A stretch of 60,575 bases of DNA from Neisseria sp. (GTDB lineage Bacteria; Pseudomonadota; Gammaproteobacteria; Burkholderiales; Neisseriaceae): positions 1 to 60,575 of the forward strand of contig JAUMYW010000011.1 of NCBI GenBank assembly GCA_030528455.1. The letters are read 5' to 3'. Under the pieces are notes generated by a model, which did not search any database, was not told the DNA's origin, and saw only the letters and a program-made list of their open reading frames with translations. Position numbers and translations under genes: made by a program. Below are positions 57,831 to 60,575 of this stretch, one piece after another (position 1 is the first letter of the stretch; each line of letters opens with the position of its first letter).

Positions 57831-57921
<91 letters not shown>

Positions 57922-57942
57922 ATCTTGAAACACAATAAAACC

Positions 57943-58033
<91 letters not shown>

Positions 58034-58129: not shown

Positions 58130-58169
58130 TTTACGGTATGTTATTTGGTATCTCATCTAATACCGTAAA
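58130..58169. repeat. Inverted repeat upstream of the integrase remnant
   Basis: TTTACGGTA (58130-58138) and TACCGTAAA (58161-58169) are perfect 9-nt inverted repeats, just before the integrase start at 58174. Such a repeat could be an integrase or excisionase binding site, or an operator. Confidence 0.55.
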
Positions 58170-58173
58170 CACC

Positions 58174-58264
58174 ATGCCCAAAATCGTCAACCCTTACCGC
58201 TACACAAATCAAATCCGCCAAGCCCGCCGATAAATTATACAAACTGCCCGACGGCGATTGCTGA
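58174..58264 (+). pseudogene. int: 5' fragment of a phage tyrosine integrase, frameshifted and truncated
   Basis: ATG 58174 reads MPKIVNP, then a two-base loss or equivalent shift leads into LTATQIKSAKPADKLYKL in another frame, then PDGD and a stop at 58264. This is the typical N-terminus of P4-type tRNA-targeted integrases (MPKxVxPLTxTQIKxAKPxDKxYKLxDG). The rest of the gene is gone; it runs into an oppositely oriented capsid fragment. It begins 140 nt after the second tRNA-Ser, the usual place for such an integrase. Confidence 0.78.
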
Positions 58265-58688
58265 CCATTTCCGCCACCGTAAACACACCTTTCAGAGAAG
58301 AAAGCAGGATGCGCTGCATCTCGCGGTTCCAATATTCGGAAGTCAGGTCGGTAACGGCGTTCAAAGGGTCGTCGCCCGACAAGGCCTGCGCCAGGTCGTT
58401 CGCCCCCCACGCCTTGCCGCGCGCGTGCAGCACGGCAATATCGGAGGCCGCCCGGATATTGTTCACCGTCAGGCTTTTCGAATCGCTCAAAACCTCGCTT
58501 GTGCCGGTCAGATCTTTCCAAAACGGCATATTGATCAAAGTGCCGCCGCGCTGCGCCAAAAGCTGCGCCTCGGGCAGTTCCGAAATAATCCCGCTGGAAA
58601 ACAGCGCGGATTTCTCTTTCGTGCGGCTGATGCTGTATCGGGTAAACACCTCCGGCACGATAATGTCGGCAATTTTGGTTGATGCCAT
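58209..58688 (-). pseudogene. Truncated phage major capsid protein
   Basis: The frame encodes 159 residues starting MASTKIADIIVPEVFTRY, with GAGTAA-type spacing after AAGGAG. The sequence (SALFSSGIISELPEAQLLAQ, INMPFWKDLTGTSEVLSDSK, WGANDLAQALSGDDP) fits phage coat proteins that normally exceed 300 residues. After about residue 143 (SSLKGVFTVAEMVSN) the sequence turns into RRRAVCIIYRRAWRI, which is just the antisense of the integrase fragment. The gene is therefore cut at about 58255. Confidence 0.78.
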
Positions 58689-58702: not shown

Positions 58703-59506
58703 CTAATCGATTCCGATACCCGCCTGCGCCGCCAGAGAGCGTGCCAGTGCGGGGTTTTCGCGGTACATGCGGCCCTGCTCGGTCATATTCCACGTTTCCT
58801 TGCTCCACGGGTTTTTGACCCCGTTCTGACGGACGACACCCGTTGCACCCGCCCCTTGGGGCGCGGGGAACCAGTGCGGCACCGCCTCTTTCATGCCCTC
58901 GAACCACTCTTTGAGCGTCAAAGGGCTGCCGTCTTTGCCGAACACGCCGTCTTTGGCCGCCGCTTCGCCGTCGTCCGACAGCACGAATGCCGTCTGCGCC
59001 CGTGCCAACGCGTCCTCAAACGCCGTCTTGTGGATACCGGCCTCCACGCCCGCCGCACGAACCGCATCGCCCAACACGCGGGCGGTAAACCTGTCGGCAC
59101 GCGCCTCGGCCGCCGCCGCCGCTTCCTGCAGCCTGGCGATTTCCTTGTCGTGCGCCGCCTTCATACGCTCCGTGCGCTTGGCCAGCACCTCGTCCACCTT
59201 GCCCTCGGCAATCAGTTTGGCTTCTTCGTTGTCGGCAAAATTCTTCAAAATCGCGCGAACCGCTTCGGGGTCGATACCGTCGAACTGCGCCAACTGCTCC
59301 TTGAGCTTTTTGTTGTCGCCGATAACTTCGCCGTTTTTGGCTTTCAGGCCGGCCACTTGTTCGTCGACGGCCTTTCTGACCGCCACGTCCAACTCCGCCT
59401 GCGAATAGGTTTTAGGCGCGTTGCCCGCCCCTTCGTCGCCTCCCTCGCCCGCCGCATTGCGGTAAAGCCGTCCGAACGCGTTTTTGCCGAATCCTTGTGC
59501 AAACAT
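58703..59506 (-). CDS. Phage scaffolding protein
   Basis: 267 residues. A Gly/Asn-rich N-terminus is followed by a long charged coiled coil (about 35-155: AELDVAVRKAVDEQVAGLKA onward). The C-terminal region contains WFPAPQGAGATGV and PWSKETWNMTEQGRMYREN. Position directly before the capsid gene (14 nt) and this architecture match capsid scaffolds. ATG 59506 has AGGAG upstream; the frame to 59572 runs through a terminator and is not supported. It appears intact. Confidence 0.8.
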   Translation of the reverse strand: MFAQGFGKNAFGRLYRNAAGEGGDEGAGNAPKTYSQAELDVAVRKAVDEQVAGLKAKNGEVIGDNKKLKEQLAQFDGIDPEAVRAILKNFADNEEAKLIAEGKVDEVLAKRTERMKAAHDKEIARLQEAAAAAEARADRFTARVLGDAVRAAGVEAGIHKTAFEDALARAQTAFVLSDDGEAAAKDGVFGKDGSPLTLKEWFEGMKEAVPHWFPAPQGAGATGVVRQNGVKNPWSKETWNMTEQGRMYRENPALARSLAAQAGIGID

Positions 59507-59531
59507 CTGTCTGTCTCCTGGAAACAAAAAA

Positions 59532-59608
59532 TAAAAAAAACGGGCTTTGCCCGCTGTAAAAAAAGCCCGCAAAATGCGGGCGTGAAAAAACCGCCTGCTT
59601 GGCAGACG
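59532..59608 (-). terminator. Stack of three terminator hairpins
   Basis: On the minus strand, in order of transcription: CCGTCTGC/GCAGGCGG (59591-59608, one U-G pair) then TTTTTT; GCCCGCATTTTGCGGGC (59565-59581) then TTTTTTT; CGGGCAAAGCCCG (59541-59553) then TTTTTTTT. They lie just after the immunity gene and before the scaffold gene. The outermost hairpin contains a one-mismatch uptake word. Confidence 0.88.
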
Positions 59609-59610
59609 GC

Positions 59611-59922
59611 CTACCGAATAATACCAAGCCTTTCCAGCTCGTCATACGCCTCTCCCGGTTCGGAAGCGACTAAGAAAAGTTTAACGGCCTGCAAAAGCCG
59701 GTGCTCGTCATATTCATAATCTTTCCTGATATGTCTCTGAGCAGTCGGGCAGTACAAGTCGGCCTGAATAAACAGGCTGGACGGTATTCTTGCCGATTTG
59801 AAACCTTCATGGGCAACACCCTTTAATTGATCATACAGATTGATATATTCATCCGCGAATTGGTCGGCAGAAATACTGCCCGCAACAAACTCATCAACCT
59901 TTTGCCTTAATGTCCTGCTCAT
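59611..59922 (-). CDS. Colicin D-type self-protective immunity protein
   Basis: 103 residues. The N-terminal helix pattern (RQKVDEFVAGSISADQFADEY) and the later SLFIQADLYCP and EYDEHRLLQAVKLFL resemble the colicin D immunity protein family (bacterial self-protective colicin-like immunity). It should bind and block the tRNase domain encoded just upstream. Its ATG (59922-59920) overlaps the stop of the toxin's restored frame (59921-59919) as ATGA. The gene itself is intact even though the toxin frame is broken. Confidence 0.75.
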   Translation of the reverse strand: MSRTLRQKVDEFVAGSISADQFADEYINLYDQLKGVAHEGFKSARIPSSLFIQADLYCPTAQRHIRKDYEYDEHRLLQAVKLFLVASEPGEAYDELERLGIIR

Positions 59923-60575
59923 AACAGAAAACCGCTTTCCAAATAATTTTTCAACTGTTCGCCCTCAGGAGAAAAAGCCGTTACAAATACATTTTCTTCG
60001 CTGAAAACAATGGCGATATTATCCTTGCCATTATAAAACACTTTGGATTTTTTTCGGGTTTCTGTATATACCGAACTGCTTAGTCGCAGAGTGGTTCAAA
60101 TGGCCGACCAGCGCATCGCGGTATGCCTGCCAATTTTCAAAGTTTGTCTGTCGGGTATTCAGCCCGAACACCGCCGCGTGTTTGAATTTATTTCTTAACT
60201 GACTTAATTCAAACATGGCTTCCGGCAAAGCCTTAGTTACAATTTTTACCGGCGGCATCGCATCAATGAAATCAGTCAGCGTACGCTGTTTGAACTGTCT
60301 GTCCAGCCGCAAATCGGCAAACTGTTTCGCACTTAAACCGCCTTCTCTGAACAACTGCCCCCACGATTTGCCAAGCACCTCATCTTGAAAGGCTTTATCC
60401 TGCATTGCCAGCCATTCGTAATAAGTGAGGCCTTCTGAAACCGTACCGTCTTTTGAAGCGCGTTTTCCTGCCGTTTCTTTACCTCGGTACGGTGCTTTTA
60501 AGACAACGGTAAACGATGTGCGGCAGTTGATGTGCACGGGCGGCACTTTGAACGCGAAATCGTGGCCGACAGGTT
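59919..60575 (-). pseudogene. MuF phage head protein with C-terminal colicin D-like tRNase domain; frameshifted, 5' end outside window
   Basis: The visible part starts inside a MuF/gp7-like head morphogenesis domain (GHDFAFKVPPVHINCRTSF). A linker of about 80 residues follows, then a domain resembling the colicin D nuclease: NKFKHAAVFGL (Lys and His like the catalytic pair), FENWQAYRDALVGHL, and KQFGIYRNP. The annotated-looking frame stops at 60031. In the next frame the domain continues (SKVFYNGKDNIAIVFSEENV, then PEGEQLKNYLESGFLL) to 59919. The switch coincides with an A7 run at 60048-60054; one A fewer restores the frame. Colicin D cleaves tRNA-Arg anticodon loops. The target here is inferred. 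Confidence 0.75.

What the first reader, a model, noticed from the sequence alone, without database searches (positions are those of the whole stretch)
59611..60575. Phage-borne MuF fusion toxin of the colicin D tRNase type with its own immunity gene
The right edge encodes the C-terminus of a MuF-type head protein fused to a domain that, by motif order, resembles the colicin D tRNA nuclease (KFKHAAVFG, then YRNP and KVFYNGKDNIAIVF). An ATGA-coupled small gene resembling the colicin D immunity protein follows. MuF polymorphic toxins carried by temperate phages are a described concept. A colicin D/ImmD pair placed between MuF and the scaffold in a neisserial prophage is specific and, to my knowledge, not characterised. 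The toxin could ride in the virion or serve in lysogen competition.
Basis: partly seen in the sequence, partly recalled or inferred. Interest (0 to 1): 0.85.

Follow-up and report, generated by a model that had tools for sequence, protein, structure and literature searches.

The report
Decayed phage head toxin with immunity
At the edge of this contig sits the remnant of a phage in which a head protein carries a colicin D-like tRNA-cutting toxin domain, followed by its matching immunity gene; the toxin gene is interrupted here, and the kind of system is already catalogued.

Summary
The observation mostly holds. On the minus strand at the contig end lie a MuF-lineage head protein C-terminus fused to the first half of a colicin D tRNase domain (60034-60573), the second half in another frame (59922-60095), and an ATGA-overlapping immunity gene (59611-59922). 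The immunity call is strongest: PF09204 34.6 bits (cut-off 22), predicted fold like solved ImmD. Same-genus genome G018 has the junction, toxin and immunity uninterrupted, though its MuF lacks the N-terminus; G003 has the head operon without the cassette. So a toxin-immunity cassette sat between MuF and scaffold.

Corrections: the toxin frame is broken in this assembly and two listed essential positions are atypical; the prophage is a remnant; and Zhang et al. 2012 already list colicin D with MuF and ImmD. New member of a known kind.

New detail: three tandem terminator-like hairpins separate immunity gene and scaffold in both toxin-bearing loci, one follows MuF in toxin-free G003, and none of 59 other MuF relatives examined has three. 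In the samples searched, MuF-colicin D was seen only here and in G018. No complete copy was seen.

The parts
60034..60573 (-). C-terminal part of a MuF-lineage phage head protein (5' end beyond the contig), fused in frame to the N-terminal half of a colicin D-type tRNase domain (from about residue 116 of this piece)
   Evidence: phrog_241 head morphogenesis E 6.4e-30; local MuF profile 120 bits, residues 10-102; PDB colicin D E 6.9e-6, residues 116-174; PF11429 21.5 bits, below cut-off 25
59919..60095 (-). Open frame holding the C-terminal half of the colicin D-type domain, in a different reading frame from the first half (gene interrupted in this assembly)
   Evidence: 30.5 bits to a profile of 25 colicin D domains; tblastn with G018's domain, 40% identity, E 0.0093 at 59925-60053; no Pfam hit for 59922-60062
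59611..59922 (-). ImmD-type immunity protein, 103 aa, uninterrupted, start overlapping the stop of the toxin's second frame (ATGA)
   Evidence: PF09204 34.6 bits, cut-off 22; 49.9 bits to profile of 25 relatives, shuffles at most 5.0; AlphaFold2 model pLDDT 82, best PDB folds 1tfk_B and 1v74_B, TM 0.81 and 0.78 by target length
59531..59611 (-). three tandem terminator-like hairpins with T runs between immunity gene and scaffold gene
   Evidence: (z -4.8, 0 of 200 shuffles as stable); three also in G018, one in toxin-free G003
58703..59506 (-). phage head scaffolding protein
   Evidence: phrog_206 E 1.5e-48; 67% identical over 255 residues to the scaffold of G003's prophage
58209..58688 (-). 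truncated major head protein (about the first 146 residues only)
   Evidence: phrog_247 positions 3-144 of 351; 67% identical to residues 1-144 of 318 in G003
57831..58033 (+). two tandem tRNA-Ser(TGA) genes next to the prophage remnant, possible integration site (inferred)

Best explanation
This is a decayed member of the MuF class of phage-borne polymorphic toxins, colicin D type. In the ancestral phage a tRNase domain was carried as a C-terminal extension of the minor head protein made next to portal and scaffold; the protein would be built into the head in a few copies and enter the next cell with the DNA, where the domain cuts tRNA and stops translation. The ImmD-like protein from the overlapping downstream gene would bind the active site and protect cells that carry or produce the phage. 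In this genome the prophage is a remnant and the toxin is interrupted, so most likely only the immunity gene could still act. Shown by sequence: fusion, domain identities, immunity fold, gene order, interruption. Inferred from relatives and known families: tRNA cleavage, inhibition, head packaging and delivery. The confidence given is for the identity and decay; for delivery in the virion I would say about 0.5.
For: Domain hits and separate-piece profile scores. Same-genus relative G018: one frame (254 aa from ATG) with the end of MuF (PF04233 31.9 bits, cut-off 29.6, profile positions 62-111 of 112) and a full-length colicin D domain (PDB 1v74_A E 1.1e-10, residues 155-253), followed through a GTGA overlap by a gene scoring 24.6 bits to the ImmD-type profile. 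Toxin-free gene order terminase-portal-MuF-scaffold-head protein in G003, whose MuF ends where the extension starts. Immunity fold like ImmD. Start/stop overlap of toxin and small downstream gene in 23 of 26 other colicin D loci. The same slot varies: 7 of 80 IMG/VR MuF relatives have a long extension, three of them over the ADP-ribosyltransferase cut-off, and so does phage VPv64; two MuF-like genes of one same-genus genome agree up to a junction and then carry different domains.
Against: No complete MuF-colicin D gene was seen: the window is cut by the contig end and interrupted, and G018's MuF lacks its N-terminal part. Delivery in virions is not testable here. Of the five positions that Zhang et al. 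list as essential, the window differs at the 607 and 614 equivalents and has Thr for Ser at 677 (Thr is common in relatives); G018 differs at 607 and has Glu for Asp at 614. No promoter-like match lies upstream of the immunity gene in the scanned stretch; the only one on its strand near it is inside its 3' end. PF11429 is below cut-off in window and G018, and G018's immunity protein is below the PF09204 cut-off (14.6 against 22). PF04233 is absent from the own assembly.
Confidence: 0.82

Rival explanations
1. The interruption is a sequencing or assembly error and the toxin frame is whole in the real organism.
For: The two halves are collinear and adjoin against G018's domain, and both keep clear similarity; the source is a fragmentary assembly with the gene at a contig end; the immunity gene is uninterrupted.
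Against: The prophage shows independent decay (truncated head protein), and two listed essential positions are atypical (window letters; relatives).
Confidence: 0.3
2. Toxin and immunity serve as an addiction or lysogen-competition module retained by the host, not as a virion weapon.
For: In both toxin-bearing loci the cassette survives inside prophage scraps: in G018 I recognise only about 2 kb of phage genes among host genes, in the window a truncated head protein and the scaffold.
Against: Only two cases; in the window the toxin itself is interrupted; no promoter-like match upstream of the immunity gene.
Confidence: 0.25
3. The colicin D-like domain on MuF has become a structural or RNA-binding tail, as proposed for the inactive BECR domain of Mu gpF.
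For: Positions listed as essential are changed in window and G018; an inactive BECR domain in Mu gpF is proposed in PMC5512222 (passages).
Against: An ImmD-type gene stays attached in both loci, which would be pointless for an inactive domain.
Confidence: 0.12
4. A colicin D/CdiA fragment and phage genes came to lie side by side by chance or misassembly.
For: The same domain is found in CdiA-like, Rhs, pyocin and other contexts.
Against: In-frame fusion in the window and in the separately assembled G018, 48% identical over 160 residues across the junction.
Confidence: 0.03

Closest known systems
Tox-Colicin D on MuF with ImmD, as tabulated by Zhang et al. 2012 (PMC3482391; table passage)
   Same: Same toxin clade, same carrier, same immunity type
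   Different: The passage I saw is a table line naming no such prophage; the example here is a remnant with an interrupted toxin and a hairpin array
MuF polymorphic toxins (Jamet et al. 2017, PMC5576092; passages)
   Same: C-terminal toxin on MuF, small gene downstream, prophage
   Different: In the main text 'colicin' occurs once, as a general mention, and 'tRNase' not at all; supplements not seen. The link to Neisseria there is a shared module with a MafB toxin
Colicin D / ImmD (PDB 1v74, 1tfk, 1tfo)
   Same: Domain collinear from end to end in G018; immunity fold alike
   Different: Carrier is a phage head protein; two listed essential positions differ
CdiA-CT and Rhs toxins of the Colicin_D family
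   Same: Same cassette with a small gene overlapping the toxin stop
   Different: Other carriers; PMC9990079 (passages) reports acceptor-stem cleavage for some, so the tRNA site here cannot be predicted from the family alone
Apk2 and Bxa MuF toxins (PMC12226406, PMC11699363; passages)
   Same: MuF carrier, adjacent immunity genes, head region
   Different: Different enzymes; these have been tested in the laboratory

Membership tests
MuF phage head protein (PF04233 / phrog_241) | MuF domain in the protein | tested here: inconclusive
   Contig ends inside the gene; PF04233 absent from own assembly, but phrog_241 E 6.4e-30 and local MuF profile 120 bits; G018 PF04233 31.9 bits, over cut-off, N-terminal part missing
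MuF phage head protein (PF04233 / phrog_241) | Location between portal and scaffold | tested here: inconclusive
   Scaffold and head protein follow in the window; the portal side is seen only in relative G003
Colicin_D (PF11429) | Score over the curated cut-off | tested here: not met
   21.5 bits for the half domain, 21.0 for G018's whole domain, cut-off 25; yet PDB colicin D E 6.9e-6 and 1.1e-10
Colicin_D (PF11429) | Catalytic His 611 with Lys 608 and Ser/Thr 677 (equivalents) | tested here: met
   KFKH in piece 1, Thr at the 677 place in piece 2; of 27 relatives 9 have Ser and 18 Thr
Colicin_D (PF11429) | K607 and D614 equivalents | tested here: not met
   Neither letter is kept in the window; K in 26 and D in 25 of 27 relatives
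Colicin_D (PF11429) | Single open frame over the domain | tested here: not met
   Two frames
Colicin_D (PF11429) | tRNA cleavage | not testable with these tools
   needs an enzyme assay
ImmD (PF09204) | Score over the curated cut-off | tested here: met
   34.6 bits, cut-off 22
ImmD (PF09204) | Helical ImmD fold | tested here: met
   Foldseek ranks 1tfk_B and 1v74_B first, TM 0.81/0.78 by target length; the model was made with 25 relatives as alignment, which may favour that fold
ImmD (PF09204) | Binds and neutralises the cognate toxin | not testable with these tools
   needs a bench test

The most novel reading that the evidence does not exclude
The triple hairpin array behind the immunity gene is a transcription valve: it lets the cassette (or the immunity gene alone) be expressed in a lysogen without switching on scaffold and capsid genes, while late, antiterminated transcription reads through; this would explain how a head-borne toxin's immunity can be present in a dormant lysogen and why cassettes outlive the prophage.
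Probability: 0.15. Interest if true: 0.55.

Novelty: new member of a known kind. Interest (0 to 1): 0.3.

Why it matters
It gives a concrete, apparently neisserial example, with an uninterrupted toxin-immunity relative and a toxin-free phage for comparison, of a colicin-type tRNase cassette placed on a phage head protein. PMC11699363 (passages) calls the biological role of MuF toxins unknown; a tRNase with a solved toxin-immunity complex in the same family is a convenient test case.

Tried and rejected
Relatives of the immunity protein by back-translated patterns: none confirmed in genome contigs (48 candidate stretches) or viral contigs (3 stretches); tblastn found none in the phage and plasmid collections. 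Colicin D domain of G018: none confirmed in viral contigs (11 stretches), one in phages, which is a CdiA-like gene in a record labelled Pseudomonas phage. Two phage records whose tblastn match ran past the MuF end turned out to be an ADP-ribosyltransferase extension (VPv64) and a match crossing a stop (AXL_3). A tree of the N-terminal halves of 28 colicin D domains left window and G018 on very long branches, so it cannot say whether the two MuF fusions share one origin. An integrase-like scrap at 58169-58261 was suspected from memory; Pfam gave no hit, so I do not claim it. A whole-assembly portal search gave nothing, uninformative in an incomplete assembly. The toxin domain was not modelled: the window's copy is interrupted, and G018's came from the genome search, which is not on the structure tool's list of accepted sources, so I did not submit it.

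Full report
What is there. The window is a contig of an incomplete assembly (G000:C13, 1-60575; 1.22 Mb in 25 contigs, 68.7% complete), and the finding lies at its end. On the minus strand the contig opens inside a gene whose first piece (60034-60573, 180 aa) matches phage head morphogenesis family phrog_241 (E 6.4e-30) and a MuF profile built here from 80 IMG/VR relatives (120 bits, residues 10-102). From about residue 116 the same frame continues into the N-terminal half of a colicin D domain (PDB 1v74_A, E 6.9e-6, residues 116-174; PF11429 21.5 bits, below its cut-off of 25). The C-terminal half lies in another frame (within 59919-60095; 30.5 bits against a profile of 25 colicin D domains; no Pfam hit for 59922-60062). 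tblastn with G018's domain matches the halves end to end, 60049-60228 and 59925-60053. A 103-aa gene follows with an ATGA overlap (59611-59922): PF09204 34.6 bits against a cut-off of 22, 49.9 bits against a profile of 25 relatives, with a best score of 5.0 among 200 shuffles (100 of this protein, 100 of G018's).

Immunity fold. An AlphaFold2 model of the window protein, with 25 relatives from genome-contig loci as alignment, has mean pLDDT 82. Foldseek against the PDB ranks the two solved colicin D immunity chains first, 1tfk_B (E 8.6e-4, TM 0.81 by target length) and 1v74_B (E 2.2e-3, TM 0.78); the next match has E 1.8. The single sequence had no phmmer match in the PDB up to E 1, but the profile of the 26 proteins hits ImmD with E 3e-19.

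Surroundings. Downstream come three hairpins, then the scaffolding protein (phrog_206, E 1.5e-48) and a major head protein cut after about 146 residues (phrog_247 positions 3-144 of 351), then two tandem tRNA-Ser genes. In same-genus genome G003 the corresponding prophage region reads terminase, portal, MuF, scaffold, head protein (its scaffold by 67% identity to the window's, and a below-cut-off Pfam scaffold match). The head proteins are 67% identical over 144 residues. G003's MuF ends in AFNKAGL shortly after the shared core, where the window's extension begins.

An uninterrupted relative. Same-genus genome G018 has one frame, 254 aa from its ATG, with the end of MuF (PF04233 31.9 bits, cut-off 29.6, positions 62-111 of 112; local MuF profile positions 211-349 of 363) and a full colicin D domain (1v74_A, E 1.1e-10; PF11429 21.0 bits), followed through a GTGA overlap by a 132-aa gene (PF09204 14.6 bits, below cut-off; 24.6 bits against the relatives' profile). 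Its MuF therefore lacks the N-terminal part, and the locus is itself a scrap of about 2 kb among host genes: no complete MuF-colicin D gene was seen. Of 46 same-genus genomes, 4 matched the window's first piece: own, G018 (through the toxin), G003 (MuF only) and G033 (31 residues); 1 of 46, the own genome, has PF09204 at E 0.01 or better.

How common. Colicin D at E 0.01 or better: 3 of 83 genomes of the family (own, G018, G067); at E 0.001 or better: 4 of 399 sampled genomes of the order (own and three others). A pattern scan of genome contigs gave 26 loci; in 23 of 26 a small downstream frame overlaps the toxin stop (offset -1), two have one at +2 and +19, and one contig ends. A six-frame search with the MuF profile over 32 loci (those 26, the three order-level loci, 15 kb around G067's copy, the Pseudomonas record, and G018's locus) rang only in G018's; it sees only the DNA held, for the order-level loci 3.3 kb each. 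Six of the 26 were scanned with Pfam: carriers were S-pyocin, haemagglutinin repeats, VENN pre-toxin and RHS, and two had no other domain. Conversely, of 80 IMG/VR relatives of the MuF part (best 80 of 136), 7 have 166-525 residues beyond the match; three of them pass the ADP-ribosyltransferase cut-off, one is just below it, two have weak other hits and one has none; none shows Colicin_D. In G033, two MuF-like genes (PF04233 about 20 bits, below cut-off) agree up to a junction and then differ, one toward an ADP-ribosyltransferase and one weakly toward PBECR3.

Is the toxin active? The window keeps KFKH and has Thr at the 677 place; of 27 aligned relatives (25 of the 26 genome-contig loci, L122 left out, plus G018 and G067) 9 have Ser and 18 Thr. 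At the 607 and 614 equivalents, two of five residues that Zhang et al. list as essential, the window has other letters, while 26 and 25 of 27 relatives keep K and D; the exceptions are G018 at both and L098 at 614. With the interruption and the cut head gene I read this copy as decaying, although an assembly error at the interruption is not excluded.

Hairpins. Three tandem terminator-like hairpins lie within 75 bases after the immunity stop (folding z -4.8, 0 of 200 shuffles as stable). G018 has three in the same place and toxin-free G003 one after MuF. With a home-made finder on up to 700 bases after the MuF stop, 62 of the 80 IMG/VR loci were kept (18 dropped because their first 150 bases repeated another's) and 3 of the 62 were too short; of the other 59 none has three and one has two. 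Six of the 59 carry a long extension and none of these six has a hairpin there, which speaks against hairpins as a general mark of MuF toxins. The two loci with three are few and related.

Mechanism. Shown: fusion, immunity fold, gene order, interruption. Known for the families: colicin D cuts the tRNA-Arg anticodon loop with a His as general base, whereas some CdiA-CT of the same Pfam family cut the acceptor stem (PMC9990079, passages); MuF proteins are thought to be present in 2-3 copies in the head (PMC12226406, passages). Inferred: tRNA cleavage here, at an unpredicted site; head packaging; delivery with DNA; protection by the immunity protein.

Known or new. Zhang et al. 2012 (PMC3482391) give MuF among the trafficking modes of Tox-Colicin D, with ImmD as major immunity protein (table passage). 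Searches for MuF with colicin D (6 papers), colicin D with prophage, Neisseria and immunity protein (5 papers), MuF with phage, toxin, immunity and Neisseria from 2017 (21 papers, 15 listed) and Tox-ColD with MuF (1 paper) showed no listing whose title or printed abstract start reports a tested MuF-colicin D toxin; the library holds only open-licence papers, and of these I read passages of a few. Verdict: a new, decayed member of a known kind, with one unexplained regulatory detail.

Noticed in passing
whole window; G000, G001, G032: A DNA-uptake-like 12-mer, AWGCCGTCTGCA, occurs 875 times in the 1.22 Mb own assembly, 827 in G001 and 1241 in G032, but at most 19 times in each of the other 43 of 46 same-genus genomes; the classical DUS and AG-DUS occur 3 and 4 times in the window. 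It may be an uptake-sequence dialect of its own; the 10-mer is not in the main text of Frye et al. 2013 (find), and the N. leonii paper mentions seven candidate dialects without letters in the passages I saw. A library search for the 10-mer gave 37 papers, 10 listed, none of the listed titles on Neisseria.
   Followed up: partly
59531-59611: Three tandem terminator-like hairpins between immunity and scaffold genes; also three in G018 and one in G003.
   Followed up: partly
57831-58033: Two tRNA-Ser(TGA) genes in tandem, directly beside the prophage remnant.
   Followed up: no
L096 63-3673: A record labelled Pseudomonas phage (MT121968) carries a CdiA-like gene ending in colicin D with an overlapping ImmD-like gene, not annotated there; it may be bacterial sequence.
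   Followed up: no
L005 763-2241 and L006 862-2400 (G033): Two Mu-like head genes in one genome that agree up to a junction, then one with a weak PBECR3 and one with an ADP-ribosyltransferase extension.
   Followed up: partly
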